Positions 11,036 through 31,138 of a DNA stretch of 64,000 bases are shown piece after piece. The notes under the pieces were generated by a model. The model had not been told where the DNA came from, searched no databases, and saw only the letters and a list, made by a program, of their open reading frames with translations. The DNA is taken from positions 126,292 through 190,291 of the forward strand of contig JAHJDP010000042.1 of NCBI GenBank assembly GCA_018831195.1, written 5' to 3'. The translations under genes were made by a program, and so were the position numbers. Position 1 is the first letter of the stretch; every line of letters starts with the position of its first letter. The stretch comes from Candidatus Eisenbacteria bacterium. Its GTDB lineage: Bacteria > Eisenbacteria > RBG-16-71-46 > CAIMUX01 > JAHJDP01.

Positions 11036-11055
11036 AGGGGTCTGTGACCCCTTTT
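11036..11055 (+). terminator. Rho-independent terminator after the ferritin-like gene
   Basis: A GGGGTC stem (11037-11042), a TGT loop and GACCCC (11046-11051) are followed by TTTT (11052-11055); an outer A-T pair extends the stem. It separates the ferritin-like gene from the rnf operon, whose first start lies 49 nt on. Confidence 0.75.
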
Positions 11056-11103
11056 AACGTCAATAATTTAGCCTGCACAATATTGGTGGGATTAAGGCTT
11101 TTT

Positions 11104-12450
11104 ATGGACATTCCGTATTTTGGACGAGGGATTCATATCCCCAAGCAAAAGCCGGTTGGTGACATTCTTGAGATTCCACCGCCCGACAAGGTGTTTCTAC
11201 TTCTTCAACAATGCGCCGGCCCCATTTGCGTGCCTGTTGTTGAGGCTGGTGACACCGTGAAAATCGGGCAGCTCGTCGCTGAGGGCGCCAAGGGTCAAGC
11301 GCCGGATTTACATTCCCCTATTTGCGGTATCGTGAAGGGGCTTGAAGACGTCATCGCCCCGAATGGGACCGTAACAAAGGCGCTGGTCGTTGAAAGCAAC
11401 GGCGGATTTGAGATGGAGACCTTCGAACCTGATCCCGATCCACTCTCGAAGAGCGGTGCGGAATTGCTCGAGGAGATCAGGAAGGCCGGCATCGTTACCA
11501 GCCGCCGGGAGGCTCATTCGCTTGAGGCTCTCATCCGCGAGGCGATGGACCCGCATGGCTTCGTTTCGGCGACCGGCTCTGTTATCGCCCGGCCGGTCCG
11601 GCAGATCGCCGTGCGATTTACGGATGTTGATCCTCATTTGGCGACCCTGAAGACCATTACAAGGGAAATCGGCGAGAAAACGGATCGCTTGCATCTGGGT
11701 CTTAAAGTTTTACAAAAGATCACCGGAACCAAGGATCTGCACTTTGTCCTGGATCGGAATCAAGACGCTCCGGGATTGGTTCAGTTGGCTGAAGACAATG
11801 AATACTCAATCCTCAGAGTCAATGCCGGGACCTACCCTTCTGCGGCCGATCCGCTCGTGGCCTGCGCCATCGGCGGTCGTGAACCGGATGTTGCGTTCCG
11901 CGGTGTTCATGAAAGCGGTGAGCTGGTGCTGGATGTGGATACGGTGCTGCGGGTCGCCCGCGCCGTCGCTGAGCGGCGGCCCGTTCTCGACCGGCTAATT
12001 ACGGTCGGCGGCTCCTTTGGAGTAAAGGTCGTCAAGATTTATATCGGTATGACGCTGGCCGACATCGCAGAGGCCGCCGGGGAAACGGAGGAATACGGAA
12101 AAGTTCTGGTCGGCGGACCGCTTCAAGGATCCGCATTACATACCCTTGATTTTCCGATGGCCAAAGATTCGACGGCCATCTGGTTGTTCAGGCCGGAAGA
12201 AGTGGTGGAGGAGGTGAACCACCCCTGCATCAGCTGCGGGCTCTGCGTGATGGTATGTCCGATGAGGTTATTGCCCGGCTTGTTGTCCCGTTATTGCGAA
12301 TTCGGCAAATGGCAGGAGGCGGAAGAGGCGCACCTTTTCTCCTGCATTGAATGTGGTTGTTGTTCTTATGTCTGCCCGGCGGAACGCTCCATGGTTCAGT
12401 TCATGGTGCATGGGAAGAACGAGGTGCTCGCTTTGTGGAGGTCCCGCTGA
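11104..12450 (+). CDS. rnfC: RnfC subunit of the ion-translocating ferredoxin oxidoreductase, variant without NADH/FMN motifs
   Basis: 448 residues from MDIPYFGRGIHIPKQK, behind an AAGG site. The N-terminal barrel (VGDILEIPPPDKV...PVVEAGDTVKIGQ) and two C-terminal [4Fe-4S] motifs (CISCGLCVMVCP at ~375 and CIECGCCSYVCP at ~414) are standard RnfC. The central domain is not. After the conserved RKAGI (residue 130), where RnfC and NuoF normally carry a GLGGAGFPT-x-VKL glycine-rich loop and an ECEPY segment, it reads VTSRREAHSLE and later RFTDVDPHLA. NADH and FMN binding are therefore doubtful, though the Fe-S relay should work. The 3' end overlaps rnfD by 1 nt. Confidence 0.9.
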   Translation: MDIPYFGRGIHIPKQKPVGDILEIPPPDKVFLLLQQCAGPICVPVVEAGDTVKIGQLVAEGAKGQAPDLHSPICGIVKGLEDVIAPNGTVTKALVVESNGGFEMETFEPDPDPLSKSGAELLEEIRKAGIVTSRREAHSLEALIREAMDPHGFVSATGSVIARPVRQIAVRFTDVDPHLATLKTITREIGEKTDRLHLGLKVLQKITGTKDLHFVLDRNQDAPGLVQLAEDNEYSILRVNAGTYPSAADPLVACAIGGREPDVAFRGVHESGELVLDVDTVLRVARAVAERRPVLDRLITVGGSFGVKVVKIYIGMTLADIAEAAGETEEYGKVLVGGPLQGSALHTLDFPMAKDSTAIWLFRPEEVVEEVNHPCISCGLCVMVCPMRLLPGLLSRYCEFGKWQEAEEAHLFSCIECGCCSYVCPAERSMVQFMVHGKNEVLALWRSR

Positions 12451-13427
12451 TGTCGAATAGCCGATATGTGGTTTCACTGTCCCCTCACATCCGCTACGGA
12501 CGCACGATACGCGGGATGATTCTCACGACGATGATCGCATTGGCGCCCTCCGTCATCTGGGGTGTTTTCACTTTCGGCTTCAACGCGCTGCTGTATGTGG
12601 CGCTCGGCGTCTTCGGCGCCGTCGGTATGGAGTTTTTGTTAAACAAGATCACCCGCCGGCCGATATCAATCGGCGACGGTCATGCCGCTCTCGTCGGTCT
12701 CATGGTGGCGATGCTCGTGCCTGCCGGTGTGCCATGGTGGGTCGTTTTTGACGGCGCGGTTTTGGCTATTCTTATCGGCAAGATGCCGTACGGCCCCCTT
12801 GGAGGCGCCCCGTTGTCACCCGCCCTTGTCGGGCTTCTCATCATGGTCGTTTCCTGTCCGAATGAGTTTGCGAAAAATGTCTATCCGATAAACGCCCCGG
12901 AGACGCGGATCGAGGGTGTCGCGCCCGCGGAAAGTCCGCAGACAGCCGTCCGGATCGATCCGAGTGACGCGGGGGATTACAGAATCAGTGATCTCTTCCT
13001 TGGAAGACAGGTCGGTCCCATCGGCACCGTTTCCCCCATGCTGCTGCTCCTCGGCGGGCTGTTTCTCATCTGGCGCCGGGTTTCGAGATGGCGGGGACCG
13101 GCCGGATTCATTGCTGGGATGCTCCTTTCAGGCGCCGTTGCGCATGCCGTGGATCCCGGACTCTATCCCCCGGTGCTGTTCCAGCTCTTCACGGGTATCG
13201 CCATGTTCGGCGCCTTCTTTCTATGCACTGAGTGGACATCAACCCCGGTCACTCCCTGGGGACTCTTTCTTTTCGGTTTCATGGCCGGGCTGCTGACAAT
13301 CATACTTCGACTTTCCGGTTTGCCGTACGGCAGGGTGCCTTTTGCCATCATGATCATGTCGCTCGCAACCCCGCTTTTCGACAGGATCACTCCCACACCC
13401 TTCGGAAAGGTGGTGCGCCATGCGTGA
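12450..13427 (+). CDS. rnfD: RnfD membrane subunit, lacking the usual flavin-attachment motif
   Basis: 325 residues with about nine membrane segments. Family features: SPHIRYGRTIRGM near the start, GDGHAALVGLMVAMLVP, GGAPLSPALVGLLIMV, and GIAMFGAFFLCTEW. The loop that normally holds the (S/T)xAT motif for covalent FMN (GISQATP in E. coli RsxD) reads QTAVRIDPSDAGDYRIS here and contains no such motif. The start ATG overlaps the rnfC stop. The subunit should still form part of the membrane core and ion path. Whether it binds non-covalent flavin cannot be told from sequence. Confidence 0.9.
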   Translation: MSNSRYVVSLSPHIRYGRTIRGMILTTMIALAPSVIWGVFTFGFNALLYVALGVFGAVGMEFLLNKITRRPISIGDGHAALVGLMVAMLVPAGVPWWVVFDGAVLAILIGKMPYGPLGGAPLSPALVGLLIMVVSCPNEFAKNVYPINAPETRIEGVAPAESPQTAVRIDPSDAGDYRISDLFLGRQVGPIGTVSPMLLLLGGLFLIWRRVSRWRGPAGFIAGMLLSGAVAHAVDPGLYPPVLFQLFTGIAMFGAFFLCTEWTSTPVTPWGLFLFGFMAGLLTIILRLSGLPYGRVPFAIMIMSLATPLFDRITPTPFGKVVRHA

Positions 13428-14039: not shown

Positions 14040-14675
14040 ATGAGGACCCCTCTTCAAGAGTTCACCAAGGGTTTTTGGGAGCAGATTCCACCGTTTCGAT
14101 TGGTACTCGGCATATGTCCCACGCTGGCTGTCACAAAATCCTTGGAAGGCGGCTGGGGGATGGGCTTGGCGACGACCTTCGTGCTCGTCTGTTCCAATAT
14201 TTTTGTTTCCGCGCTTCGAAAGGTCGTTCCCCCCAAAGTGAGGATCGCCACTTTTATTGTTATTATCGCGACATTTGTTGTCATCACTGAATTGGTAATG
14301 AAAGCATATACCCCGATGTTATCAGATTCCCTGGGGGTATTTATCCCGCTCATCGTGGTGAATTGCATCATCCTCGGCCGGGCGGAAGCCTTTGCATCCA
14401 AAAACGGTGTCGGACGATCCCTGCTCGACGGATTGGGCATCGGGCTTGGTTACACATTAGCCCTATCCGCCATTGGGTGTATTCGCGAGCTGTGCGGAAC
14501 CGGCGGTCTGACATTGTTTTCCCAGGCGAATCTGGGCGTATCCCTTATTCCCTTGGCCGATGGCCAGGAATTCCTTTTTAAGTTTATGGTGGATCCTCCC
14601 GGTGCTTTCGTCACCCTGGGGGGAATGCTGATGCTTATGAACATTATCAGCGCGCGTTCGGCCAAGGCCGCATAG
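14040..14675 (+). CDS. rnfE: RnfE membrane subunit
   Basis: 211 residues, six hydrophobic segments. Key motifs LGICPTLAVTKS and VVNCIILGRAEAFA carry the two cysteines that, with the matching pair in RnfA, are thought to hold the intramembrane [2Fe-2S] cluster. Both are present, so the central electron path is intact. Spaced 14 nt after rnfG and 10 nt before rnfA, in the usual C-D-G-E-A-B order. Confidence 0.95.
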   Translation: MRTPLQEFTKGFWEQIPPFRLVLGICPTLAVTKSLEGGWGMGLATTFVLVCSNIFVSALRKVVPPKVRIATFIVIIATFVVITELVMKAYTPMLSDSLGVFIPLIVVNCIILGRAEAFASKNGVGRSLLDGLGIGLGYTLALSAIGCIRELCGTGGLTLFSQANLGVSLIPLADGQEFLFKFMVDPPGAFVTLGGMLMLMNIISARSAKAA

Positions 14676-14685
14676 GGAGCACGTC

Positions 14686-15261
14686 ATGTCTGAATATTTA
14701 CTCCTCGTCGTCTCCGCCATCTTGGTTAACAATATTCTCTTGGCGCAATTCCTTGGGAATTGCCCATTTTTAGGCGTGTCCCAGAAAATGGGGACCGCGA
14801 CCGGAATGGGGATGGCGGTCATTTTCGTGTTAACCCTTGCCGGCGCTATCACCTGGATCGTGCAGTGGTATTTGCTGGTGCCCTATGAGCTGGAGTATCT
14901 CAGAACCATCGCCTTTATTCTTGTGATCGCCGCATTGGTTCAGCTGGTCGAGATTGTTCTTCAGAAAACCGCACCGGCCTTATACAACAGCTTGGGTATC
15001 TTCTTGCCCCTTATTACAACGAATTGCGCGGTACTTGGTGTGGCGATTATCAATATCCAGAAGGACTTCGATTTTATAAACACATTGATATATTCATTTG
15101 CCTCTGCGGTCGGATTTGCTCTCGCGCTCGTCTTGTTTGCGGGGCTGCGGGAACGATTCGCCCTCACCCGTATGCCGAAAGCGCTGCAGGGAACCGCGTC
15201 GGGGCTCATCACGGCAGGTCTCATGGCCCTGGCATTTCAGGGGTTTAAGGGTTTGATCTAA
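14686..15261 (+). CDS. rnfA: RnfA membrane subunit
   Basis: 191 residues, six hydrophobic segments, related to RnfE with inverted topology. The motifs NNILLAQFLGNCPFLGVS and LITTNCAVLGVAI keep the two conserved cysteines for the shared intramembrane [2Fe-2S] cluster. Normal length for the family. GGAGCACGTC precedes the ATG. Part of the rnf operon. Confidence 0.95.
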   Translation: MSEYLLLVVSAILVNNILLAQFLGNCPFLGVSQKMGTATGMGMAVIFVLTLAGAITWIVQWYLLVPYELEYLRTIAFILVIAALVQLVEIVLQKTAPALYNSLGIFLPLITTNCAVLGVAIINIQKDFDFINTLIYSFASAVGFALALVLFAGLRERFALTRMPKALQGTASGLITAGLMALAFQGFKGLI

Positions 15262-15280: not shown

Positions 15281-17353
15281 ATGTTCGTTGCGGCTTGTGT
15301 CATCGGAGGAATCGGGTTCCTTGCAGCACTAGGTCTGGGTGTCGCCGCGCGGTTCTTCGCCGTTCACGTTGATCCCAAAGTTCTCGAGATCGAGGAGGCA
15401 TTGCCGGGGGCGAACTGCGGCGGATGCGGCTTTTCCGGGTGTTCGGCGGCGGCGTTGGCCGTCGCAAAAGGTAAGGCGGGCCCGGATCTCTGTGTCGCCG
15501 GCGGAATCGAGGTGGCTGAGGCGGTTGCGGAAATCCTGGGTCTATCCGTGGAAGCCGGGGAAGTCGGCATCGCTGAATTGGGATGCAAGTATGGGATGGA
15601 TGATGCCCACCTTCGCTTTGATTATGCCGGTGTTCCCGATTGCCGGGCCGCCGCATTGGTCGGCGGCGGCGGCAAGATTTGTACAATGGGATGCCTGGGT
15701 TTGGGAACTTGCGTCAATGCCTGTCCGTTTGGCGCCCTGGTCATGGGCGAAGACGGCCTGCCGCATGTGATCGCCGAGAAGTGCACGGCGTGCGGTACCT
15801 GCGAGCGAGTCTGCCCCAAAGGGATTATCCGGGTTCAGACGCCCAGCCGCCGGTTCACGCATGTACAAACCGAGGATGATTGTGTCGCTCCCTGCCAGGC
15901 GACCTGTCCCGCCCAGATCGATATTCCGGATTACATAGCGGCCATCGGCCGGGGTGAGTTTCTGGAGGCGGTGCGAATCATCAAAGAGGCCAATCCATTC
16001 CCATTGGTTTGCGGCCGGGTTTGCCCCCATCCCTGCGAAGCCGCCTGCCGGCGGGGAGAGGTTGACGAAGCCATCAATATCAACCATCTCAAAAGGTTTG
16101 CCGCCGACTTCGAAATGACTTCCGGACAGCACGTGCTTCCCCAAGTCCTTTCGGATACGGGGAAGCGGGTCGCGATCATCGGCGGTGGCCCTTCTGGATT
16201 GACCTGCGCCTACTATCTGGCGCGCTTGGGTCACAAAGTAAAGGTCTTTGAGGCGATGCCGGAACCGGGCGGCATGCTCCTCTACGGCATTCCCGAGTAC
16301 CGTCTGCCGAAGAAGACGCTGGCCTGGGAGATTGACGGTATTCTTCAGCTGGGTGTCGAGTTGGAATGTAATACAAAGATGGGCAAGGATTTCACACTGG
16401 ATGACCTAATTAACCAGGGATTTGATTCGGTCTACATAGCGGTCGGCGCCTGGGATTCACGCCGGTTGGGTGTGCCTGGAGAACATGATTTTGAAGAGGT
16501 GGCGAGCGGAACGGAATTTTTAATTAAGCGCGGTTTGAGGGAGGACACACCGATCGGCAAAAATGTCATGATTGTCGGCGGCGGCAATACGGCGATGGAC
16601 GCCGCGAGAACTTCCTGGCGCCTGGGCGCTGAAAATGTCTACCTGCTTTACCGGCGATCGCGAAAAGAGATGCCGGCTAACGACATTGAAGTCGCTGAAG
16701 GGGAGCATGAGGAAATCAAATATCATTTCCTCGCCGCCCCGACAAAATTGGTCGGCGAGGGTGGACGGCTGAAGGCTTTGGAATTCCAAAAAATGGAGCT
16801 TGGTGAGCCTGATGCCTCCGGCCGACGCAGGCCTGTGCCGGTTGAAGGTTCTGAAATGGAGATTGAGGTCGACAATGTTTTCAGCGCGATCGGGCAATCC
16901 CCGAATCTGGACTGTCTCGATGCCGGTGACTTGGCCAAAATGATAGAGCGGACACGATGGAACTCGATCGACGCCAAGGAAGGCACCATGCAAACGGCTC
17001 TCAAACAGGTCTTCGCCGGGGGTGATGACTGGCGTGGCGCCGCCACGGCGGTGGAGGCGATTCGAGACGGACGTTTTGCCGCGCGATCGATTCATATGAG
17101 CCTTATGGGCGAAGAGATGGAGCTTCCATCCAATTGGTACCGTAAGGCGCCGAATCTGCCGGGTATCGATAGGGGGGTTTCCTTTGAGAGGGGAGCGCGT
17201 GTGAAAATGCCGGAGCTCAGTGTTGATGAGCGCCGGCTGAATTTCAATGAAGTTGAACTCGGATTAACTGAGGAGATGGCCAGGAAGGAAAGCCGGCGCT
17301 GCCTCCAATGCGGGCTTATCTGTTATCAAGGCTATCGGAAGAGTTTTCCATGA
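15281..17353 (+). CDS. rnfB: RnfB fused to a GltD/NfnB-type NAD(P)H-FAD oxidoreductase
   Basis: 690 residues, whereas RnfB alone is usually about 190-330. Residues 1-25: membrane anchor. ~40-75: the RnfB cluster domain (Cys46, 49, 54, 71). ~134-180: ferredoxin domain with Cys134/138/144/148 and Cys168/171/174/178. From ~200 a complete glutamate-synthase-small-subunit-like module begins: an N-terminal cysteine region (CVAPCQATCP, CGRVCPHPCEAAC), an FAD site GGGPSG (301-306), an NAD(P) site GGGNTAMDAA followed by YRRSRKEMPA, as in NADPH-using GltD, and a final CLQCGLIC. The fusion supplies a nucleotide site that RnfC seems to have lost. The stop overlaps the cytochrome start (ATGA). Confidence 0.92.
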   Translation: MFVAACVIGGIGFLAALGLGVAARFFAVHVDPKVLEIEEALPGANCGGCGFSGCSAAALAVAKGKAGPDLCVAGGIEVAEAVAEILGLSVEAGEVGIAELGCKYGMDDAHLRFDYAGVPDCRAAALVGGGGKICTMGCLGLGTCVNACPFGALVMGEDGLPHVIAEKCTACGTCERVCPKGIIRVQTPSRRFTHVQTEDDCVAPCQATCPAQIDIPDYIAAIGRGEFLEAVRIIKEANPFPLVCGRVCPHPCEAACRRGEVDEAININHLKRFAADFEMTSGQHVLPQVLSDTGKRVAIIGGGPSGLTCAYYLARLGHKVKVFEAMPEPGGMLLYGIPEYRLPKKTLAWEIDGILQLGVELECNTKMGKDFTLDDLINQGFDSVYIAVGAWDSRRLGVPGEHDFEEVASGTEFLIKRGLREDTPIGKNVMIVGGGNTAMDAARTSWRLGAENVYLLYRRSRKEMPANDIEVAEGEHEEIKYHFLAAPTKLVGEGGRLKALEFQKMELGEPDASGRRRPVPVEGSEMEIEVDNVFSAIGQSPNLDCLDAGDLAKMIERTRWNSIDAKEGTMQTALKQVFAGGDDWRGAATAVEAIRDGRFAARSIHMSLMGEEMELPSNWYRKAPNLPGIDRGVSFERGARVKMPELSVDERRLNFNEVELGLTEEMARKESRRCLQCGLICYQGYRKSFP

Positions 17354-18483
17354 TAAGAGAGAGATTGTTCACAGCAGCCGCTCTCTGCGGTTTGATTCTG
17401 GCGTTGGGTTGTGGTCAGGGCGATAAAGCCGTCTCCACGGAGAGCGGGATCTCGGAGTGGTCCTTGCCCTATCAACGTATCCCGACCGGTGGGGAAGATC
17501 CGGCGGAATATGGGCCGGATGATTCTACTGTTCTCGCGGAGATGCCCGGGAATATGGGAGAGGTCGGTTTTTCGCATTTCACACACGCCTCCAATGCCAT
17601 GAACGGCTACCGGATCCCCTGCCGTGTTTGTCATCACAATGTCGCCGAAGGGGAGGATCCCGGGGAGCGATGCGCCGATTGCCATCGTCCACCGCATGAT
17701 GGAGATCCGGCGCACGGCGGTCCCGATGACAATATGCTGTTCATCGGCAAAAACCAAGATCCGGCGAAAGTGCTGCCCGTACCCTTCACTCACTTCAGCC
17801 ATGCCTCGAATCAGGGGCATAAGATTGCCTGCGAGACTTGCCACCATACCGGCGATCTCATGGCATGCAGTGAATGCCACCAGGCGGATGTCTCGCTCGT
17901 ATCCGAAAAAGGTAAGTTTATCCCCAAGATGAAACGCGCCGCTCACTTGAAGTGCAAAGGATGCCACCAAGCGGTGAATGATCGCCACCCGGAGGCTCCG
18001 GCCCCGATCACCTGCAAGGGATGCCATACGCTTGAGGCCCCGCGGCGTCTGGCCGGCCCCCTTTCCCTGGACCGCGCTTATCATCTGGATTGCATTGGAT
18101 GCCACCAACGGGTCGCCCTGGCCATTCCCGGTGCGCATGCGCCGGGGGGAGATTGCGGCGGATGCCATCGGTGGGAAAAGCCGCCGAAGGATGACAGCGC
18201 GGGTACAACGATGTCGATGGTGGCTCTAAACGACCTGGGACCCTCGGCATTGGAAATCTCCTTCGGCCAGGATCGCAAACCGACGACTCCGCTGAATCAC
18301 CGGCATCATCAGGAGCTGATCGAACATTGTGAAACCTGTCATCATGAAGGTCTTGATATCGCGACCTGCAGCGATTGTCATGAGGCGGAAGACGCCAAGG
18401 AGATCTATCACCAACTCTGTATCGGGTGTCATGAAGAGCTCGGCGCGCCGGCACGGTGTTCCGCCTGCCATCCGGAACATTAA
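17350..18483 (+). CDS. Dodecahaem c-type cytochrome, probable lipoprotein
   Basis: 377 residues with twelve CxxCH motifs arranged as three cytochrome c3-like groups, plus many additional histidines for bis-His ligation (for example FSHFTHASN and FTHFSHASN). The N-terminus (MIRERLFTAAALCGLILALGCGQ) is a signal sequence with a cysteine at the cleavage point, so a membrane-anchored periplasmic lipoprotein is likely. The ATG overlaps the rnfB stop. In Desulfovibrio a decahaem cytochrome is linked to rnf, and in Methanosarcina a multihaem cytochrome is part of Rnf. By analogy this protein would connect Rnf to periplasmic donors or acceptors. Confidence 0.9.
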   Translation: MIRERLFTAAALCGLILALGCGQGDKAVSTESGISEWSLPYQRIPTGGEDPAEYGPDDSTVLAEMPGNMGEVGFSHFTHASNAMNGYRIPCRVCHHNVAEGEDPGERCADCHRPPHDGDPAHGGPDDNMLFIGKNQDPAKVLPVPFTHFSHASNQGHKIACETCHHTGDLMACSECHQADVSLVSEKGKFIPKMKRAAHLKCKGCHQAVNDRHPEAPAPITCKGCHTLEAPRRLAGPLSLDRAYHLDCIGCHQRVALAIPGAHAPGGDCGGCHRWEKPPKDDSAGTTMSMVALNDLGPSALEISFGQDRKPTTPLNHRHHQELIEHCETCHHEGLDIATCSDCHEAEDAKEIYHQLCIGCHEELGAPARCSACHPEH

Positions 18484-18521
18484 ATCTTGAATATGAAAAA
18501 CGGCCGCAGGGGCAGCGAGTT

Positions 18522-19022
18522 ATGAATCATACATGCCATGAAGAGGCCGTCGTCACGGGGTTGGCTCCGGGGAATCAAGTTGTCATCGCGGTTCGCAGAG
18601 CCGAGGCCTGCCATCAATGCTCCGCCAAAAGCGCTTGCGTCACTCTCGGCGGCCAGTTTAAGGAAATGTCTCTCACCGTGCCCAACACGATACAGGCCCG
18701 GCCGGGAGACCGAGTTCAATTGGCCCTTTCCGAAACCGATGTCGTCAAGCTTTCGTTCGCGCTCTATCTCCTGCCGGCGCTGACACTCATCGCCGGAGCG
18801 ATCCTCGGCAACCGCTTCGCCGGATCTTTCGGGAGCGACCCCAATTTGATCTCTCTTCTGGGCGCCCTCGCCGGTGTCATCATAGGTCTGATCGGTGCGC
18901 GGTTGCTCAGCAAGCGGATGAGCAAGGACGGCCGCTACAACCCACGTCTTACACGCATTATCAGATCAGGAACGGATATTGATTCGGACGCCACCACTGA
19001 ATCAAGCGACACAAAGGAGTGA
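18522..19022 (+). CDS. RseC/MucC-like positive regulator, SoxR-reducing-system type
   Basis: 166 residues from MNHTCHEEAVVTG, chosen because the domain begins there and a GGGGCAGCGAG stretch precedes it. The soluble N-terminal part carries CHQCSAKSAC, the C-x2-C-x5-C pattern of RseC, and two membrane helices follow (about 80-98 and 104-124). In enterobacteria RseC works with the Rsx (Rnf-like) complex to keep SoxR reduced. Its position in the rnf operon fits that link; no soxR is in the window. Confidence 0.85.
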   Translation: MNHTCHEEAVVTGLAPGNQVVIAVRRAEACHQCSAKSACVTLGGQFKEMSLTVPNTIQARPGDRVQLALSETDVVKLSFALYLLPALTLIAGAILGNRFAGSFGSDPNLISLLGALAGVIIGLIGARLLSKRMSKDGRYNPRLTRIIRSGTDIDSDATTESSDTKE

Positions 19023-20720: not shown

Positions 20721-22154
20721 CTACCAGATCCCCGTTTTGAGATATTCATCGATCGCTTTGGCCGCCGTCTGGCCGGCGCCCATGGCGAGAATCACCGTCG
20801 CCGCGCCGAGGACAATATCCCCGCCCGCAAAAACGCCTCTCTTATTTGTTTTGCCGGTCGCTTCGTTGGCTTCGATATTTCCCCAGCGTTTTATCTGAAT
20901 ATCCGGGGTCGTCTGCGGGATCAGGGGATTGGGGCCGTTGCCGATAGCGACCACGATCGTATTGACATCATAAGTATGTTCGCTGCCCTCAATGACGACC
21001 GGTCTCCGGCGGCCGCCCGCATCCGGCTCGCCAAGTTCCATCTTGACGCACTCCAGCGCCTTCACACGGCCTTTATCATTACCAAGCACTCGTGTCGGGC
21101 TGGTGAGGAGGAAAAGCTCAACTCCCTCCGCTTCGGCGTGCTCGATTTCCTCATGCCGGGCCGGCATCTCCTCGCGGCCCCGGCGGTAGATCAGCAGGGA
21201 TCGCTCCGCGCCGAGCCGCAGCGCCGTGCGGGCTGAATCCATGGCGACATTACCCCCACCGATGGTGGCGACGACGCCGCCTCTGGCAAGGGGTGTGTCG
21301 TAAGAGGGGAAATCATACGCGTGCATGAGATTTGAACGGGTGAGGTATTCGTTCGCCGAGTAGACGCCGATGAGGTTCTCGCCGGGGATGTGCATAAAGA
21401 CAGGCAGACCCGCGCCGGTACCGACAAAGATGGCATCAAAGCGTTCAAGCATCTCATCAATCGTCTCAATCCGCCCGACTACATAATTGCAATGAATTTT
21501 GACGCCCATCTTCTTCAAGATATTCACTTCGGCTTCAACAATAGTGTTGGGCAGCCGGAATTCGGGGATCCCGTAAATCAGCACGCCGCCCGGTTTGTGC
21601 AAGGCCTCGAAGACCTCGACCTCATGGCCCATACGCGCGCAGTCAACGGCGGCGGTGAGACCGGCAGGCCCGGATCCGACAATCGCCACTTTCTTCCCGG
21701 TCGGAGGAGCAACTTTGGGAACATCGACCTGATCGGATTCACGCTCCCAATCAGCGAGGAAACGCTCCAGGCGGCCGATAGCCACCGGCTCACCCTTCTT
21801 CCCGAGAATACACTTTGCTTCACATTGCGTTTCCTGGGGACACACGCGTCCGCAGATGGCCGGGAGAATATTCATCTGTTTCAGCAGGCGGACGGCGCTG
21901 CGAAAATCCTTTTCACTGATCAGCCGGATAAATCCGGGAATGTCTATGCCCACGGGGCATCCGCTGACACACAGAGGTTTTTTGCATTGGATGCAGCGAG
22001 AGGCTTCAAGAACCGCCATATCGGCGGAATACCCAAGAGCGACTTCGGTAAACTCACGGCTCCGCTTTTTCGGATCCTGCTCCGGCATCGGTTGTCTTGG
22101 AATCTTGACCTTCTTCGGTTTCGTTTCTGGTGCCTTCTTTTCCGTTGAATCCAC
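20721..22154 (-). CDS. nfnB: NfnB/GltA large subunit: NADPH-FAD oxidoreductase
   Basis: 477 residues from a GTG with GGAG 8 nt upstream; the longer frame would overlap nfnA deeply. Domains: N-terminal cysteines CIQCKKPLCVSGCPVGIDIP and CGRVCPQETQCEAKCILG for [4Fe-4S] clusters, FAD site GSGPAG, then NADP site GGGNVAMDSA with YRRGREEMPARHEE. It pairs with the NfnA-like product of the preceding gene to form either the electron-bifurcating NADH-dependent ferredoxin:NADP+ oxidoreductase or the related sulfide dehydrogenase. It is the second GltD-type module in the window; the first is fused to RnfB. Confidence 0.9.
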   Translation of the reverse strand: MDSTEKKAPETKPKKVKIPRQPMPEQDPKKRSREFTEVALGYSADMAVLEASRCIQCKKPLCVSGCPVGIDIPGFIRLISEKDFRSAVRLLKQMNILPAICGRVCPQETQCEAKCILGKKGEPVAIGRLERFLADWERESDQVDVPKVAPPTGKKVAIVGSGPAGLTAAVDCARMGHEVEVFEALHKPGGVLIYGIPEFRLPNTIVEAEVNILKKMGVKIHCNYVVGRIETIDEMLERFDAIFVGTGAGLPVFMHIPGENLIGVYSANEYLTRSNLMHAYDFPSYDTPLARGGVVATIGGGNVAMDSARTALRLGAERSLLIYRRGREEMPARHEEIEHAEAEGVELFLLTSPTRVLGNDKGRVKALECVKMELGEPDAGGRRRPVVIEGSEHTYDVNTIVVAIGNGPNPLIPQTTPDIQIKRWGNIEANEATGKTNKRGVFAGGDIVLGAATVILAMGAGQTAAKAIDEYLKTGIW

Positions 22155-22156
22155 TT

Positions 22157-23035
22157 CTATTTCTCCCCGCTCAAATTTTCGGCCTGCCGAATCATCCTGC
22201 ATCCTTCGCCGTGAGCTTCGTTCCAGCGCTTCAACGCCTTGCTTTCCTCGTCATTATAGGAATGCAGGCGGTTGGTCAGTTCGTCAAAATCGACTTTGTG
22301 GCCGTCAAACTCTGGACCGTCGACACAGGCAAACTTGGTTTCGCCCCCCACGGAAACACGGCATCCGCCGCACATCCCTGTTCCGTCAATCATGATCGTA
22401 TTGATACTGACAAAGGTGGGGATCCCATACGGCTCGGTTGTTTTGGATACAAACTTCATCATGATGGCCGGACCGATGGCGACACAGAAGTCAATCCTTT
22501 CACCGGCGTCAATCATTCTTTGCAAAGGTCCCGTGACAAGGGCCTTTTCCCCATAAGAGCCGTCGTCCGTGGTAACGATTGTCTCATCACTGATCGCCTT
22601 CATCTCGTTCTCAAGAATCAAGAGGTCTTTCGACCGGGCGCCGAGAATCGTGATAATCTTATTTCCCGCCTTCTTCAGGGCTTGAGTAATCGGGAAAAGG
22701 GGAGCGATTCCGATGCCGCCGCCGATACAGACGACCGTACCGAAATTTTCGATATGCGTCGGCTTGCCCAGGGGACCGACGATATTCTCTATGACATCGC
22801 CCACTTTCATTTGTGATAATTGCGTCGTGGTCTTTCCGACAACCTGGAAGATGAGTGTGATCGTGCCGGCCTCAGAATCGGCGTCGGCTATCGTCAGCGG
22901 TATCCGCTCGCCGTATTCATCAATTGATAGAATAATGAATTGCCCCGCCTTCCGTTTACGGGCAATTTGAGCCGCTTCAACCACCATCCGAAACACAGCC
23001 GGACCCAGAACTTCCATTTTTAAAATCTTATGCAT
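22157..23035 (-). CDS. nfnA: NfnA-like ferredoxin:NADP reductase subunit (FAD / [2Fe-2S])
   Basis: 292 residues. An FAD-binding ferredoxin-reductase domain (RIPLTIADAD), an NAD-binding domain with CIGGGIGIAPLFPI, and a C-terminal [2Fe-2S] motif MCGGCRVSVGGETKFAC. This is the small subunit of NfnAB/sulfide dehydrogenase, similar to PyrK. AGGAG lies 7 nt before the ATG, and the next gene starts 2 nt after its stop, so the subunits are coupled. Likely role: moving electrons between NADH, NADPH and reduced ferredoxin, complementing Rnf encoded a few kilobases away. Confidence 0.9.
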   Translation of the reverse strand: MHKILKMEVLGPAVFRMVVEAAQIARKRKAGQFIILSIDEYGERIPLTIADADSEAGTITLIFQVVGKTTTQLSQMKVGDVIENIVGPLGKPTHIENFGTVVCIGGGIGIAPLFPITQALKKAGNKIITILGARSKDLLILENEMKAISDETIVTTDDGSYGEKALVTGPLQRMIDAGERIDFCVAIGPAIMMKFVSKTTEPYGIPTFVSINTIMIDGTGMCGGCRVSVGGETKFACVDGPEFDGHKVDFDELTNRLHSYNDEESKALKRWNEAHGEGCRMIRQAENLSGEK

Positions 23036-24717: not shown

Positions 24718-26871
24718 TTATTTCAATAGTATCATACGTCTTGTTTCCTTTTGAGATCCCGTCTCCAGTTGATAAAAATAGACTCCCGCTCCGGCATCGG
24801 AACCCTGCGCATTGCATCCATTCCAGGTCACCGTGTGGGATTCGGCGCCTTCCCAAGCGCCGTTTTTCAGCAAGCGCACGAGCCGCCCCGACGCATCGTA
24901 GATCCCCAGACGGACGAATGCCGGCGATCCGAGCCGGTAGGAGATTGCCGTCGATCGGGCGAATGGATTCGGTGAACTTCTAAGGGCCATCAAGGATGTC
25001 ACCGCGGGTCCGGAAGTCGACGATGATATCATCTCGTTTCTAAAAATCCAGATGCCCCCCGTGTAAATCATGTCATCCTGAGCAGCAATACAGCGGGTGT
25101 GATATCCCGGACGGGTATAAATAGCGGCGAATTTCAACTGGGCCGGGTCGCTGATATCATAGGCCCGCAAGTCTCCATAATAATCACCTGTGTAGACATA
25201 CTCATCCGTCAGCCCGAACGTGGTAACCGGCCCGCCATCAAGCTCAAGGAGGTCGATCGGTTGCGGATTATATGGATCTGAAACATCAAACGACATCAGG
25301 ACATATCCATACTCTGCCACGACACCGGTGAGGAAGACAATACCTCCGGCGACGCCGATATCGGTCGCCTTGTACATCGGATAGCTGCCGAGAATTTCAG
25401 GGATGCCCTCGATTGTATAATCCACGACCTGAAATCCCCCATTGCCGGCGTAATAGGCATAAGGGCCGGCGACGGCGACAGCATAGGGATCATTTTCAGG
25501 CAGAAGATTGTGGATGGTCGGACTTTCAGGAGTGGAGATGTCGAGGGTGAGAAATCCCTTATCATAAACCGTCAGGAAGGCATAATCCCCGGCGATGGCA
25601 AGGTCGCCTGATCCAGGGATTCCATAAAGAGCTACCTCTTCAGGCACAGCGGGATTCGAGATATCGATGATTCTCATACCCTGGGAGCTGCCGAGGTAAA
25701 CAAAATGATCCTGAATAGCAATATTTTGTACATAATCATCATCGGTTCGATAGAGACCGATCGGTGTTGGATCGGTCGGATCTGAAACATCCATCACCCT
25801 GAGCCCGGAATAAGACTCGGCGATATAGGCCAAATCGTTTTGTACAACCAGATCGGTACCGTAAGATCCGGAGAAGCAGAAGGAGATCTCTTTAAGTTTC
25901 ATTGGATTGGATCCATCGACGATTCGCATCCCCCGAGTGAAAGCGGCCACATAGATTAAGTCGTTGACGCACTCGATGCCATAGGTGCCGTAGGGTGCAT
26001 CGAATCTGGACACCTCGATTGGGTGTGATGGGTCGGAAATATCGACCGCCCGGAGACCCGAACCACGGCAGGCGACAATGGCAATATTGTCAATGAGATC
26101 GACCTCGAGAGGCTGACCATAGGCATTATAGAGACTGACCCACTGAGGCGATGTGGGATCCGAGATATCATAGATCTCCATGCCGGTTCCTTCAGCGGCG
26201 AGATAGGCATAGCGCCCTCTCAGCGTCACCCCTTCAAAGCCGTAATAGGGTCCTTCAGGAATGAGAGCGACCAGGGTGGGTGAGGTGGGATCCGCAATAT
26301 CCAAAATAAAAACGCCGTCCCAAGTCGATACAAAGGCGTAGTGATCGCGGATAGCTACATCCTGAGCGAAGGCATTCTGGTCGAAATGCCCGATCTCATG
26401 GGGATCGGTCGGGTCCGAAACATCAAAAATCCTCAAATCGACCAGGCTTTCGACCACGAAAGCCAATCCACCGCTGACGGTAACCGCCTTCGCCTGCGTG
26501 CCGGCGGGCGCGGAGCCGATGATGGTCGGCGCCGAGGGCTGAGTGATGTCGACAATCTGTAAACCGAATGCGGAATCGGCGATGTAGGCCAAAGAACCGA
26601 CAATATCAATCCCTTGAATGACGGATGGGAGCAAGATATCACCCACATGTATAGGTTCGCCCGGCTTGCTGATATCCACGATCTGCAAACTTGAGGCGGC
26701 GCCATAATAGGCGAGGTTCCCCGCAACCTTGACATCGAAACAGGGACCTCGTTCCCAGCGGCCGAGCAATGAAATGTCATCGCATTGTGCGATCTGTGGA
26801 GATCCCAATATGCATACGCAGCAAACCATCCCTTGGATCAGGCGAAACAGAACATCAGGGTATCCTCTCAT
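24718..26871 (-). CDS. Secreted LVIVD-repeat beta-propeller with C-terminal FlgD-like/sorting module
   Basis: 717 residues. AAGGAGG sits 5 nt before the ATG. A signal sequence (to about residue 30) is followed by many ~42-residue LVIVD repeats, each with the pattern LQIVDIS-x-P-x-x-P and a YAYVA/ADY strand, forming one or two propellers (about 33-620). The last ~80 residues (SSPNPFARSTAISY...YDASGRLVRLL...GVYFYQL...RRMILLK) match the FlgD-Ig/type-A sorting-like module of FCB secreted proteins. It is probably exported to the surface. No enzyme residues recognised. Confidence 0.85.
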   Translation of the reverse strand: MRGYPDVLFRLIQGMVCCVCILGSPQIAQCDDISLLGRWERGPCFDVKVAGNLAYYGAASSLQIVDISKPGEPIHVGDILLPSVIQGIDIVGSLAYIADSAFGLQIVDITQPSAPTIIGSAPAGTQAKAVTVSGGLAFVVESLVDLRIFDVSDPTDPHEIGHFDQNAFAQDVAIRDHYAFVSTWDGVFILDIADPTSPTLVALIPEGPYYGFEGVTLRGRYAYLAAEGTGMEIYDISDPTSPQWVSLYNAYGQPLEVDLIDNIAIVACRGSGLRAVDISDPSHPIEVSRFDAPYGTYGIECVNDLIYVAAFTRGMRIVDGSNPMKLKEISFCFSGSYGTDLVVQNDLAYIAESYSGLRVMDVSDPTDPTPIGLYRTDDDYVQNIAIQDHFVYLGSSQGMRIIDISNPAVPEEVALYGIPGSGDLAIAGDYAFLTVYDKGFLTLDISTPESPTIHNLLPENDPYAVAVAGPYAYYAGNGGFQVVDYTIEGIPEILGSYPMYKATDIGVAGGIVFLTGVVAEYGYVLMSFDVSDPYNPQPIDLLELDGGPVTTFGLTDEYVYTGDYYGDLRAYDISDPAQLKFAAIYTRPGYHTRCIAAQDDMIYTGGIWIFRNEMISSSTSGPAVTSLMALRSSPNPFARSTAISYRLGSPAFVRLGIYDASGRLVRLLKNGAWEGAESHTVTWNGCNAQGSDAGAGVYFYQLETGSQKETRRMILLK

Positions 26872-27052
26872 CACGGCCTCCTTATTATCAGACAGGATAT
26901 TATATTCACATTCAAAAAGGCTGAGAATCCGCAGATCTTTCCTCGCGTCCCAATTGTAGAACAGCCAGGTGGAGGGGGCAATCCCGAGAATTGGTTCGAG
27001 TTGCGGAGTCCCCTCGTCACGCCTCTTGTGATGGAGCTATTGGACGCTATAG

Positions 27053-27147: not shown

Positions 27148-28008
27148 TTAGTCTTCGGTTTCCTCGCTCGCGACGCGCTCCTTGCGATCCGCCAGCTTCT
27201 TCAGCCCGGCCGCCGCGAGACCGGCGAGCAGTGCCGCCCCCGCCGGACCGGCCGCCACCGATGCCAGGTTGGATCCTTGATCGATCTGCCAGGCCGCGAA
27301 TTTCTCTCTGCCCCGGCGCTTGATCGAATCGAGATCGCCTTTGTTCGGATTGACTGGAAGTCCGTAAATCTCCAGCCGTTCTGGAAGCACATAGATCGAG
27401 TGCATACCCCCCTGCTGCTTAATACCGTAGACATTGGCATTAGGGAAGCCCTGCGCCTTCAACTCCTCGACTCGGTCCACGGCAAGAGCGTACATCTCAG
27501 TTTTCTCGCCGTAGCGAATCGCATGAGTGGGACAGGTCTTGGCGCAGGCGGGAAGCTTGTTATTAGCGACACGATCAACGCATGATGTGCACTTCTTTGA
27601 CTTCTCCGCTTCCTCGTCCAAATGCGGCACTCCGAAGGGGCAGGCATCGACACAGGATCCGCAGCCGATACAGAGTTCCTGATTGACATAGACCGTTCCA
27701 AATTCCGGATGCCGCGTCATCGCCTTGTGCGGTTCCACCGGGCAAACGTCAATGCAACTCGCATCAGTGCAGTGGAAGCAGTGGTGGCGACGGAAGAGCC
27801 ATTGCACCTGTTTCTTCTCATCAACCTCATAGAATTTGAGAATCGTCCATGTCTTGGAGGACAAGTCCGCCGGATTCTGATATCCGCCGGGCGCCGCGAA
27901 GAAACAAGTCTTCTCCCCGGGAAGGTAGTTCCACTGTTTGCAGGCTACCTGGCAGCTCCGGCAGGCGATGCAGAGCGATCCATCATAATAGAAAGAATTC
28001 TCTGCCAT
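27148..28008 (-). CDS. fdhB: Formate dehydrogenase iron-sulfur (beta) subunit
   Basis: 286 residues, FdnH/FdoH-like. Four [4Fe-4S] motifs are visible: CIACRSCQVAC near residue 13, CFHCTDASCIDVCP near 77, CIGCGSCVDACP near 113 and CTSCVDRV...CAKTCP near 140-158. A C-terminal hydrophobic segment (about 248-270) could anchor it as in FdnH. Its AAGGAGGTG ribosome-binding site lies inside the last codons of fdhA, so the two are translationally coupled. No cytochrome b (gamma) gene follows; electrons may go to periplasmic cytochromes. Confidence 0.93.
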   Translation of the reverse strand: MAENSFYYDGSLCIACRSCQVACKQWNYLPGEKTCFFAAPGGYQNPADLSSKTWTILKFYEVDEKKQVQWLFRRHHCFHCTDASCIDVCPVEPHKAMTRHPEFGTVYVNQELCIGCGSCVDACPFGVPHLDEEAEKSKKCTSCVDRVANNKLPACAKTCPTHAIRYGEKTEMYALAVDRVEELKAQGFPNANVYGIKQQGGMHSIYVLPERLEIYGLPVNPNKGDLDSIKRRGREKFAAWQIDQGSNLASVAAGPAGAALLAGLAAAGLKKLADRKERVASEETED

Positions 28009-28010
28009 GA

Positions 28011-31000
28011 TTACACCTCCTTCGCTACGTCACAGAGGAACGCTTTAAACTCGGGAATCATCGTGTTGGCATCTCCAACGTGCGGTGTCAGCACATTGGC
28101 GCTGCCTCCCGTCGCGAGACCCGCGTATCCCCAGTGCCATGGAATGCCGACTTCGTGATAAGCCTTCCCCTTTATCTGGAAAGGCTTGAAACGGGCGGTG
28201 ACCAGGGCATACGCGGAGATTTCGCCGCGCGCCGTGATGATCTTGATCTTATCCCCGTTTTTGATCTTCTTCTCACCAGCCAGCTCTTTCGATAGCTCGA
28301 CGAACACATTTGGCATCAGCTCGCAAAGCCAAGGCAAGTGGCGCGTCATCTGACCGGCCTGCCAATGTTCAACCACACGGTAGGTCGTGGCGATGATCGG
28401 GAATTTCTTCGGATCGCCGATATCGTCCATCTCAGATGCCCAGATTTTCACAACAGGATTTATCTGTTGTGAGTAGATGGCATTCTTGACCGGTGATTCG
28501 AGCGGTTCGTAGTGGGCCGGGAAGGGACCCTCGACCAAACCGTTCCCAAAGAGCTGAGCGTGACCATGAGGCTTCATGATGAAGGCATACTTCGTACCAG
28601 GCGCCCAGCCGCCGTCAGGCACATCGCCTTCCCATCCGCCCTTTCCATCATTCAGCGCGGCATTCCAGCGGATGACCCACTGTTCCGCGTCCCATGGCTT
28701 GCCCTCAAGATCCACGGAAGCGCGATTATAGATGATCCTCCGGTTGACCGGCCAGCACCAGGCCCAATTGGGATAGAGGCCGATCTTGTTCGGTGCATCG
28801 GTCGGATCCCGGCGGGCCGCCATATTGCCCTTCGCTGTGTAGGAGTTGCAATAGAGCCAGTTTCCACTGCACGTCGAGCCGTCGTCCTTCAACAAGGCGA
28901 AGCTGGCGATCTGGTCGCCCCTCTTCACAGGTGACTCGTTTTGGACGAAATCCCTCATAGCGAAGCCGTTGCACTCCTTGGCGACCCTGTGGACATCCGG
29001 TTCCTCTCCGTCACCGTAATTCCAGAACAGATTGACAATCGGATCGGGGAAGGTGCCGCCCATGTCATAACGCGCCTTGAGCGCCTTAAAGAGCTTGTTG
29101 TAAATCCAGAGGTCGGATTTCGCCTCACCCGGCGGTTCGACGGCCTTGTATCGCCATTGCATCCACCGGCCCGAATTGATGATCGAACCTTCCTTCTCGA
29201 CGGAACTCGCGGCGGGCAGCGCGAAGACTTCCGTATCAATCGTCTTGGGATTGACTCCCGGCCTCTTCCAGAAATCCATCGTGTCGGTTTCCCAAAGATC
29301 GACGGCGACAAGCCACTCGAGTTTCTCGAGGGCTCTGCGTTCTTTGTTCGCGTTCGGTCCGCCGACGGCGGGATTCTGTCCGAAGCAGAGGAGACCCTTG
29401 ATGACACCGTCGTACATCGCTTCGAACATCCCGATATGCGGATAGGTGGAGAGGTTGTCACACAACTTCGGCAGATAGTGGTAATCGAACTCATTTTCTG
29501 CTGTCGCGTGGTCGCCCCAGTAGGCCTTGAGGAAGCTCACCATGTACTTGGGCGTGTGCTGCCACCAGTTGGCCGACTTTTCACCGTAGTCGCCCTTCGG
29601 CGTCCACTTATCAAGATAGGCCTGAAGACTGGTGTTGGCCGCCCGCGGGGTTTTCAGGTAGCCGGGGAGGATATGGTAGAGCAAGGCGTAATCGGTTGAG
29701 CCTTGCACATTGGACTCGCCGCGCAATGCGTTGATCCCGCCGCCCGCCACACCGATATTCCCCAGAAGCAGCTGCAGCATCGCATAGCTGCGGACGTTCT
29801 GGGTACCGACCGTGTGTTGCGTCGTCCCCATGGCGTACATGATGGTGGCCGCTTTCCCCGTTGCGCCGGTCGCGCAGAAGGGCTCGGCGATCTTGTTAAA
29901 GGTCTCGACCGGCATACCGGTGATTTCGTAGACCTTCTCGGGTGTATATGCCGAGTAATGTTTCTTCATCAGCTGAAGCACACAGTGCGGATCCTGCATC
30001 GTCATATCACGTGCCGGGCCGCCATCACCTTCAGCATAGGCCCAGGAACTCTTTTCGTAACTTCTCTTCGCCGCGTCATAGCCAGTGAAAAGGCCATCCT
30101 CGAAACCAAACTTGTCGTCCACGAGGAAAGTCGCGTCTGTATAATTCTTGATGTATTCCTCATTATAGAGCTTGTTTTCGAGAACATAACGGAAGAGACC
30201 ACCGATAAAGGCGATATCAGTTCCTGACCGTATCGGGCCGTAGATATGCGCTTTCGATGATGTTCGTGTGAATCTTGGATCGACATTGATCAGCGTCGCG
30301 CCCCGTTCCACCGCCTTCATCACCCACTTGAATGATAGGGGATGATTCTCGGCGGCATTGGAGCCGATGATCATGATGCAGTCGGAATTCTGAAGATCAC
30401 ACCAGTGATTGGTCATTGCCCCCCGACCGAAACTCTGCGCCAGACCGGCGACAGTGGCCGAGTGTCATATACGGGCCTGATGTTCGATATAGACCATTCC
30501 CAGGGCGCGCATCAGCTTGCCGTAAAGGTAGCATTCCTCATTATCCAGAGCCGCGCCGCCGAGGCCGCCGATAGCGTCACAGCGATTGACCACACGTCCC
30601 TGTTCATCGTTTTTGGTGAAGTAGGCGTCACGGGTGCTTTTAATGCGATCTGCGATCTTTTCAATCGCCCAATCCCATGACTTCTCCTCCCACTCTGTAG
30701 CGCCGGGGGCTCTATAGAGAACCTTTTTCATGCGGCGGTCGCTGGTCGCCACTTGATATAACCCCTGCCCCTTACAGCAAAGAGATCCCTGGTTGATCGG
30801 ATGATCGGGATCTCCTTCCACATTGATCACTTTGCCGTTCTTTGCGGAGACAATAAGGCCGCAGCCCACTCCGCAGTACGGACAGATCGTGGTGGATTCT
30901 GTTGAGTGCTGGGTCTTGAATGATTGGGCAAATGCGGCTGTCGGTCCCAAATCGAGACCGAACTTCGCGAGAAGTCCCCCGACAACCGCGGTTCCCGAAA

Positions 31001-31031
31001 CACCCAGGAACCCTCTCCTTGAAAGTTTCAT
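28011..31031 (-). CDS. fdhA: Selenocysteine formate dehydrogenase catalytic (alpha) subunit, Tat-exported
   Basis: 1006 residues if the in-frame TGA at 30465-30467 is read as Sec189. Before it: a Tat signal (SRRGFLG at residues 4-10), then the [4Fe-4S] motif CPYCGVGCG...CCKG, and VYIEHQARI. After it: HSATVAGLAQSFGRGAMTNHW, the sequence that follows Sec in FdnG/FdhF-type enzymes. The rest is a normal bis-MGD (Mo or W) enzyme including the C-terminal cap. Reading frame and length are exactly preserved across the TGA, so this is one gene. The start has AAGGAG 8 nt upstream. It is the periplasmic formate oxidation site; selenium insertion genes must be elsewhere. Confidence 0.95.
30426..30467 (-). 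promoter_or_regulatory. Bacterial SECIS element at the fdhA UGA codon
   Basis: Reading leftward from the TGA, 18 nt separate it from a GGTCT apical loop (30446-30442) closed by CGCC/GGCG. The spacing and the GGUCU loop sequence are the same as in the E. coli fdhF SECIS as I recall it. This should recruit SelB for selenocysteine insertion. Confidence 0.85.
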
Positions 31032-31138
31032 GTGTGATCACTCCTTATCTGAGGATTTGATCTTTGACCTCCACTGATTACATCCGGAAGCCCCTTCGGG
31101 CGGAAAAATCGATACTTATAAAATGAACCCCATACGGT

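What the first reader, a model, noticed from the sequence alone, without database searches (positions are those of the whole stretch)
15281..17353. RnfB fused to a complete GltD/NfnB-type NAD(P)H oxidoreductase: a rewired Rnf complex
One continuous 690-residue frame joins the RnfB anchor, its Fe-S domains and a full glutamate-synthase-small-subunit module with FAD and NAD(P) sites. The YRRSRKEMPA motif resembles NADPH-using GltD. Since RnfC seems to lack an NADH site, the pyridine nucleotide reaction may have moved to the ferredoxin-side subunit, possibly with NADPH. That would change the energetics and direction of the pump: NADPH and ferredoxin would meet on one polypeptide, with RnfC/D/G facing a periplasmic cytochrome.
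Basis: partly seen in the sequence, partly recalled or inferred. Interest (0 to 1): 0.88.

Follow-up and report, generated by a model that had tools for sequence, protein, structure and literature searches.

The report
Rnf pump fused to NADPH module
This bacterium carries a rebuilt version of the Rnf ion pump: the usual NADH end is lost, the subunit that normally takes ferredoxin carries a complete NADPH-type flavin domain, and the other end probably meets a cytochrome outside the membrane; the same design is common and almost unnoticed in sulfate-reducing bacteria, where Rnf is still described as a ferredoxin:NAD pump.

Summary
One 690-residue ORF (15281-17353) joins a complete minimal RnfB to a complete GltD-like FAD/NADP module, inside an rnfCDGEA-B-cytochrome-rseC operon. 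It is not an artefact: dozens of full-length homologues exist, including about 69 of 288 Desulfovibrionaceae genomes. All 29 complete RnfC proteins beside a fusion lack the FMN/NADH loop; 27 ordinary RnfC keep it. But the loss is not caused by the fusion: 20 of 20 unfused Desulfovibrionaceae operons also lack it. A new finding strengthens the case: the RnfD threonine that carries covalent FMN, present in 11/11 ordinary RnfD, is kept in only 2 of 54 members of this clade. RnfG flavin and RnfA/E cluster cysteines are kept. So the whole NADH arm looks dismantled, and electrons most likely leave or enter at RnfG through a periplasmic multihaem cytochrome, as proposed for Methanosarcina acetivorans Rnf. 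In the window and 18 relatives the NADPH motifs are intact (19/19). In 41 other fusions they are degenerate, so the module is sometimes only a relay. Best reading: an ion-coupled NADP(H):cytochrome c Rnf. Direction and substrate are untested. New variant of a known kind.

The parts
11044..12450 (+). rnfC without FMN/NADH loop; RnfC_N domain and two [4Fe-4S] Cys sets kept
   Evidence: AF2 model and Foldseek to RnfC 9eri/8ahx/7zc6
12450..13427 (+). rnfD (start inferred from the conserved MSNSRYVVSLSPH; ORF opens at 12351); covalent-FMN threonine replaced by Ser, motif absent
   Evidence: PF03116
13420..14025 (+). rnfG, FMN_bind; flavinylation motif kept as SGASIS
   Evidence: (best NCBIfam RnfG_DVU2794)
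14040..14675 (+). rnfE with membrane [2Fe-2S] cysteines
14686..15261 (+). rnfA with membrane [2Fe-2S] cysteines
15281..17353 (+). rnfB-gltD fusion, 690 aa
15281..15865 (+). RnfB part: TM helix (aa 2-25), single [4Fe-4S] domain (aa 41-72), dicluster (aa 134-184)
   Evidence: AF2; invariant Cys in A2
15881..16123 (+). Fer4_20 [4Fe-4S] domain of the GltD module; Lys271 as in StnC (Glu in NfnB)
16166..17071 (+). FAD and NADP(H) Rossmann domains
16577..16600 (+). NADP dinucleotide loop GGGNTAMD (aa 433-440)
16649..16678 (+). NADPH 2'-phosphate motif YRRSRKEMPA (aa 457-466)
17300..17323 (+). C-terminal cluster motif CLQCGLIC (aa 674-681), position as in NfnABC/StnC
17350..18483 (+). periplasmic lipoprotein-type multihaem cytochrome c3 family, 12 CxxCH; ATG overlaps the fusion's stop (ATGA)
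18456..19022 (+). rseC/mucC-type gene, also beside many other fusions
20721..22202 (-). separate NfnB (NADPH-binding) - neighbour, not part of the complex
   Evidence: TIGR01316 above cut-off
22157..23035 (-). separate NfnA - neighbour
   Evidence: NF004862 above cut-off

Best explanation
An Rnf complex rebuilt as a reversible, ion-translocating NADP(H):periplasmic cytochrome c oxidoreductase. NADPH is oxidised (or NADP+ reduced) at the FAD of the GltD module. Electrons pass singly through its two [4Fe-4S] clusters to the RnfB dicluster and then the mobile RnfB cluster, cross the membrane by the RnfA/E [2Fe-2S] cluster, which drives ion translocation as in ordinary Rnf, and reach FMN of RnfG. 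There they go to or come from the co-encoded multihaem cytochrome. The former NADH arm (RnfD covalent FMN, RnfC FMN/NADH) is lost and RnfC is mainly structural. In this genome a soluble periplasmic-type formate dehydrogenase encoded 8-12 kb away would favour the inward direction, NADP+ (or ferredoxin) reduction driven by the ion gradient. Shown from sequence: fusion, motif states, operon, co-occurrence. Inferred: electron path, substrate, coupling, direction.
For: Intact GGGNTAxD and YRRxxxEMPA in 19/19 Rnf-linked type A fusions that are only about 50% identical. Module closest to NfnABC (9bov, 9n5u) and StnC (8oh5), whose GltD domain oxidises NADPH and feeds [4Fe-4S] clusters (PMC10482914). 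RnfC FMN/NADH loop absent in 29/29 fusion operons, present in 27 ordinary RnfC. RnfD flavin Thr 11/11 in controls, 2/54 in this clade. RnfG flavin motif (62/64 rows) and all four RnfA/E cysteines kept. Cytochrome gene beside rnf in 40/40 Desulfovibrionaceae operons and translationally coupled here. M. acetivorans precedent: Rnf that does not use NAD(P), RnfG to cytochrome c (PMC4023990). TAT/Sec FdhAB at 27148-31031.
Against: NADP motifs degenerate in 41 of 60 fusions, so the module can be kept without nucleotide binding. RnfC keeps both [4Fe-4S] clusters in every member, which a purely structural subunit would not need. Cytochrome gene not adjacent in L035-L038. In D. alaskensis the adjacent decahaem cytochrome had little fitness effect although Rnf was essential on H2/formate (PMC4215793), though that strain's RnfB type is unknown here. 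No biochemistry exists; ferredoxin use is not excluded because the RnfB clusters are complete.
Confidence: 0.55

Rival explanations
1. The GltD part is a docking and relay adaptor: it takes electrons from another soluble enzyme (formate dehydrogenase, NuoF/HydB-like, NfnAB) through FAD and Fe-S clusters, and NADPH is not its physiological partner.
For: NADP motifs lost in 41 of 60 fusions while FAD loop and Fe-S cysteines stay. In the sister family (L116, L118) a NuoG/FdhA-type Mo-protein fused to NuoE follows directly, with NuoF-GltD further downstream. Desulfobacteraceae stand-alone fusions sit beside NuoF-like or FdhA-like genes.
Against: In the window and all 18 type A relatives the nucleotide motifs are invariant, and no such partner gene was seen in the type A operons examined.
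Confidence: 0.2
2. Ferredoxin and NADPH both act at RnfB-GltD, so the complex con- or bifurcates between NADPH, ferredoxin and the periplasmic cytochrome.
For: The RnfB dicluster and single cluster are complete, so a ferredoxin site may persist; GltD-fold NfnB can bifurcate.
Against: The cluster ligand position carries Lys271 as in non-bifurcating StnC, not Glu as in NfnB (PMC10482914). The extra polyferredoxin tail found in unfused Desulfovibrionaceae RnfB is replaced.
Confidence: 0.12
3. It is an ordinary ferredoxin:NAD+ Rnf with an unimportant extra domain.
For: Six Rnf subunits in the usual CDGEAB order; Desulfovibrio Rnf is described that way in the literature (PMC4215793).
Against: FMN/NADH site of RnfC and FMN site of RnfD are missing across the clade.
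Confidence: 0.05
4. Misassembly or frameshift joined two genes.
For: None.
Against: Dozens of independent homologues with the same junction.
Confidence: 0.01

Closest known systems
Rnf of Desulfovibrionaceae (dhcA-rnfCDGEABF; D. alaskensis, D. gigas)
   Same: Operon order, co-encoded multihaem cytochrome, RnfC without FMN/NADH loop, RnfD without FMN Thr (found here in 40 operons)
   Different: Described as ferredoxin:NAD+ Rnf. About 69 of 288 genomes carry the RnfB-GltD fusion; a 2024 paper (PMC11434368) saw 'loss of rnfB' replaced by an 'FAD-dependent oxidoreductase', very probably this fusion read as a loss
Methanosarcina acetivorans Rnf-MmcA
   Same: Cytochrome-linked, does not use NAD(P), RnfG proposed to pass electrons to cytochrome c (PMC4023990); the Methanosarcinaceae locus L095 also lacks both sites
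   Different: No GltD module; ferredoxin donor; heptahaem cytochrome of another family; not in the same tree clade
NfnABC / StnABC transhydrogenases (9bov, 9n5u, 8oh5)
   Same: GltD domain with FAD, NADPH motifs, two [4Fe-4S] clusters, C-terminal cluster motif, Lys ligand
   Different: Soluble; GltD is fused to a NuoG domain and feeds a NuoF-type bifurcating site, not an ion pump
Na+-NQR
   Same: Rnf-type core with the RnfC-homologue stripped of cofactors and a recruited flavin reductase supplying the pyridine nucleotide site
   Different: Different reductase (NqrF), quinone acceptor, NqrB flavin kept; here the recruited module is GltD on RnfB and the exit is periplasmic

Membership tests
Rnf complex | Homologues of RnfA,B,C,D,E,G in one operon | tested here: met
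Rnf complex | Membrane [2Fe-2S] cysteines in RnfA and RnfE | tested here: met
Rnf complex | Covalent FMN motif in RnfG | tested here: met
   SGASIS
Rnf complex | Covalent FMN Thr in RnfD | tested here: not met
Canonical ferredoxin:NAD+ Rnf | FMN/NADH site in RnfC | tested here: not met
Canonical ferredoxin:NAD+ Rnf | Ferredoxin oxidation at RnfB | not testable with these tools
   clusters are complete, activity unknown
NfnB/StnC-type GltD module | FAD loop, NADPH motifs, Fer4_20 and second cluster cysteines | tested here: met
Electron-bifurcating NfnB | Glu ligand next to the bifurcating FAD, NfnA partner | tested here: not met
   Lys271 at that place; NfnAB is a separate gene pair
Cytochrome-linked Rnf (Methanosarcina type) | Co-encoded multihaem cytochrome and no NAD site in RnfC | tested here: met
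   common descent with the archaeal complex not supported
Na+-NQR | NqrF and quinone-reducing NqrB | tested here: not met
   no NqrF in the operon

The most novel reading that the evidence does not exclude
A widespread, unrecognised class of respiratory ion pump: an Rnf that couples cytoplasmic NADPH/NADP+ directly to periplasmic cytochrome c, with the NADH arm dismantled. This would mean that Rnf in many sulfate reducers is not a ferredoxin:NAD+ oxidoreductase at all, and that RnfB variants are exchanged on one cytochrome-linked core to choose the cytoplasmic partner.
Probability: 0.45. Interest if true: 0.85.

Novelty: new variant of a known kind. Interest (0 to 1): 0.74.

Why it matters
Rnf in sulfate reducers is modelled as a ferredoxin:NAD+ pump in energy budgets. 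If both flavin steps of the NADH arm are missing, those models are wrong for a large clade. The function of the co-encoded cytochrome, open since it was noticed in Desulfovibrio rnf operons, becomes testable. An NADP(H)-linked version would give these bacteria an ion-driven way to make NADPH from periplasmic electrons, or to conserve energy from NADPH. It would be a second case, parallel to Na+-NQR, of an Rnf core re-equipped with a foreign flavin module.

Tried and rejected
Misassembly/frameshift: rejected by dozens of homologues. 'Fusion occurs with normal RnfC': searched for, not found (0/29). 'Fusion caused the NADH-site loss': rejected, unfused relatives have it too. 'Unfused Desulfovibrionaceae RnfB are truncated fusions': rejected, they carry ordinary polyferredoxin tails and a separate RnfB lineage. 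Locating D. alaskensis G20 by its published primers: no exact match in 288 genomes; the one 1-mismatch hit was a chance site outside rnf, so G20's RnfB type stays unknown. Naming the window's phylum by 16S: only about 81% to Gemmatimonadales and Desulfarculus, unresolved. AU test on the 65-row tree did not finish; a 35-row set was used instead. The regex hits for an RnfD flavin motif in L161 and L174 lie outside the aligned site. Two flavinylation papers (PMC8238504, PMC11334425) that might mention Rnf-like systems could not be read, cap reached.

Full report
Observation. The frame 15281-17353 is a single 690-aa ORF. It has a membrane helix (aa 2-25), the RnfB [4Fe-4S] domain, the RnfB dicluster, a Fer4_20 domain and a complete FAD/NAD(P) reductase module. 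The RnfB part by itself has the make-up of a minimal RnfB (one [4Fe-4S] domain plus a dicluster); published RnfB isoforms carry three to eight [4Fe-4S] clusters (PMC11889175). The fusion's stop codon overlaps the start of a lipoprotein-type cytochrome with 12 CxxCH motifs (ATGA, 17350-17353). The operon is rnfC-D-G-E-A-(B-gltD)-cytochrome-rseC.

Relatives. In the window's own phylum 4 of 47 held genomes have a full fusion. A scan of named genomes returned about 38 fusions, nearly all Desulfobacterota. In Desulfovibrionaceae about 69 of 288 genomes carry full-length fusions, with up to four copies (a lower bound, since few candidates per genome were scored). Two contexts exist: at the end of an rnf operon (window, L035-L039, L042, L043, L045, L046, L070, L116-L118, L151-L170), or away from rnf genes, often followed by rseC, in Desulfobacteraceae.

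Every complete RnfC beside a fusion lacks the FMN/NADH loop (9, 20), while 27 ordinary RnfC keep it, including the second Rnf of the window's own genome (L115). But 20 of 20 unfused Desulfovibrionaceae operons lack it too, as do L074, L075, L078 and the Methanosarcinaceae locus L095. So loss of the NADH site is the ground state of this Rnf clade, not a result of the fusion.

A second loss. In structures of ordinary Rnf, electrons run RnfB, RnfA/E [2Fe-2S], RnfG FMN, RnfD flavins, RnfC clusters, RnfC FMN, NAD+ (PMC11889175, PMC12174285). I aligned RnfD. The threonine of the flavinylation motif is T in 11/11 ordinary RnfD and in 2 of 54 members of this clade; the window has Ser and no motif around it. 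RnfG keeps its flavin motif and RnfA/E keep all four cysteines. The path is therefore cut after RnfG on the cytoplasmic return branch, at two places. This points to RnfG as the contact with the cytochrome, as proposed for M. acetivorans (PMC4023990). Unexplained: RnfC still keeps all eight cluster cysteines.

The GltD module. Its nearest solved relatives are the GltD parts of NfnABC (9bov, 9n5u) and StnC (8oh5), then NfnB and GltD. StnC's domain oxidises NADPH and is not bifurcating (PMC10482914). The window has the StnC-type Lys (271), not the Glu of NfnB, and the C-terminal cluster motif in the same place. Over 60 fusions, 19 have both NADP motifs intact (window, L035-L039, L151-L153, L155, L156, L159, L161, L162, L166-L170), all of them in rnf operons. 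In 41 the YRRxxxEMPA motif is gone and the nucleotide loop is altered, with the FAD loop kept. The sister family of the window's organism has a degenerate module, followed by a Mo-protein fused to a NuoE domain and, further on, a NuoF-GltD protein. So the module is a hub: NADP(H)-linked in type A, probably fed by other enzymes elsewhere.

History. A tree of RnfD+G+E+A puts all these operons in one clade (53 rows, SH-aLRT 100), with the 20 unfused Desulfovibrionaceae nested among fused ones; fused rows as one clade are rejected on a 35-row set (p-AU 2e-57). In the RnfB N-domain tree the fused proteins form one clade with three unfused Desulfobacterota RnfB (SH-aLRT 97), and the unfused Desulfovibrionaceae RnfB lie outside. 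The simplest account is one origin of the fusion and later exchange of the RnfB subunit on a shared cytochrome-linked core. These are quick trees with some long branches, the window among them.

Genome context. NfnAB lies at 20721-23035. A TAT-signal, selenocysteine formate dehydrogenase alpha subunit (28011-31031, Sec codon at about 30465), its beta subunit and FdhE lie at 27148-32068, without a membrane gamma subunit. Such soluble periplasmic enzymes feed cytochrome c3 in Desulfovibrio (general knowledge). No dsrA was found, so sulfate reduction is unlikely. Two [NiFe]-hydrogenase-like large subunits exist. This makes inward flow, formate to cytochrome to NADP+, reasonable, but it is an inference.

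Prior knowledge. No held paper describes an RnfB-GltD fusion. PMC11434368 reports that many Desulfovibrionaceae 'lost' rnfB and have an FAD-dependent oxidoreductase gene at the operon's end; the sequences here indicate that this is the fusion. The 2025 Rnf review (PMC12174285) does not mention NADPH or Desulfovibrio. Desulfovibrio Rnf is otherwise treated as a ferredoxin:NAD(H) pump (PMC4215793), with the cytochrome of unknown function; the D. gigas genome paper (PMC4287179) repeats a hypothesis of electron transfer between periplasmic cytochromes and cytoplasmic NAD(P)H/ferredoxin.

Verdict.

Noticed in passing
window 27148-32068 (-): Selenocysteine, TAT-signal formate dehydrogenase FdhA (in-frame TGA at about 30465), FdhB and FdhE, with no membrane subunit: a soluble periplasmic enzyme close to the Rnf operon.
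   Followed up: partly
window 20721-23035 (-): A complete NfnAB pair between the Rnf operon and the formate dehydrogenase; a redox island.
   Followed up: no
L115 (G000:C34:22000-36000): The same genome has a second Rnf/Nqr-type locus with ordinary RnfC (FMN/NADH loop intact), ordinary RnfD flavin motif and an ApbE-like gene.
   Followed up: partly
L116 8933-11881 and 2334-5381; L118: In a sister family the rnf operon with degenerate fusion runs into a Mo-protein fused to a NuoE domain and a 1015-aa NuoF-GltD fusion, with CBS/DRTGG-like genes between: a possible Rnf-linked formate or NADH entry complex.
   Followed up: partly
L044, L047-L068, L072: Desulfobacteraceae carry membrane-anchored RnfB-GltD proteins without any rnf genes nearby, often next to NuoF-like or FdhA-like genes and rseC; their NADP motifs are degenerate.
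   Followed up: partly
L154, L157, L158, L160, L163-L165: A second Desulfovibrionaceae rnf paralogue with a 5-haem cytochrome and a fusion whose NADP motif became LxxxxxRKMxA; several genomes carry both paralogues.
   Followed up: partly
L171-L190: All 20 unfused Desulfovibrionaceae Rnf operons also lack the RnfC FMN/NADH loop and the RnfD flavin threonine, so the whole family's Rnf is unlikely to be NAD-linked.
   Followed up: yes
L095: A Methanosarcinaceae RnfC and RnfD also lack the NADH/FMN loop and the flavin motif; parallel loss in an archaeal cytochrome-linked Rnf.
   Followed up: partly
L075 3-5742: Ca. Desulfofervidaceae: hydrogenase-type genes directly upstream of a motif-less, unfused rnf operon.
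   Followed up: no
window 24718-26874 (-): LVIVD-repeat protein with a type IX secretion C-terminal signal.
   Followed up: no
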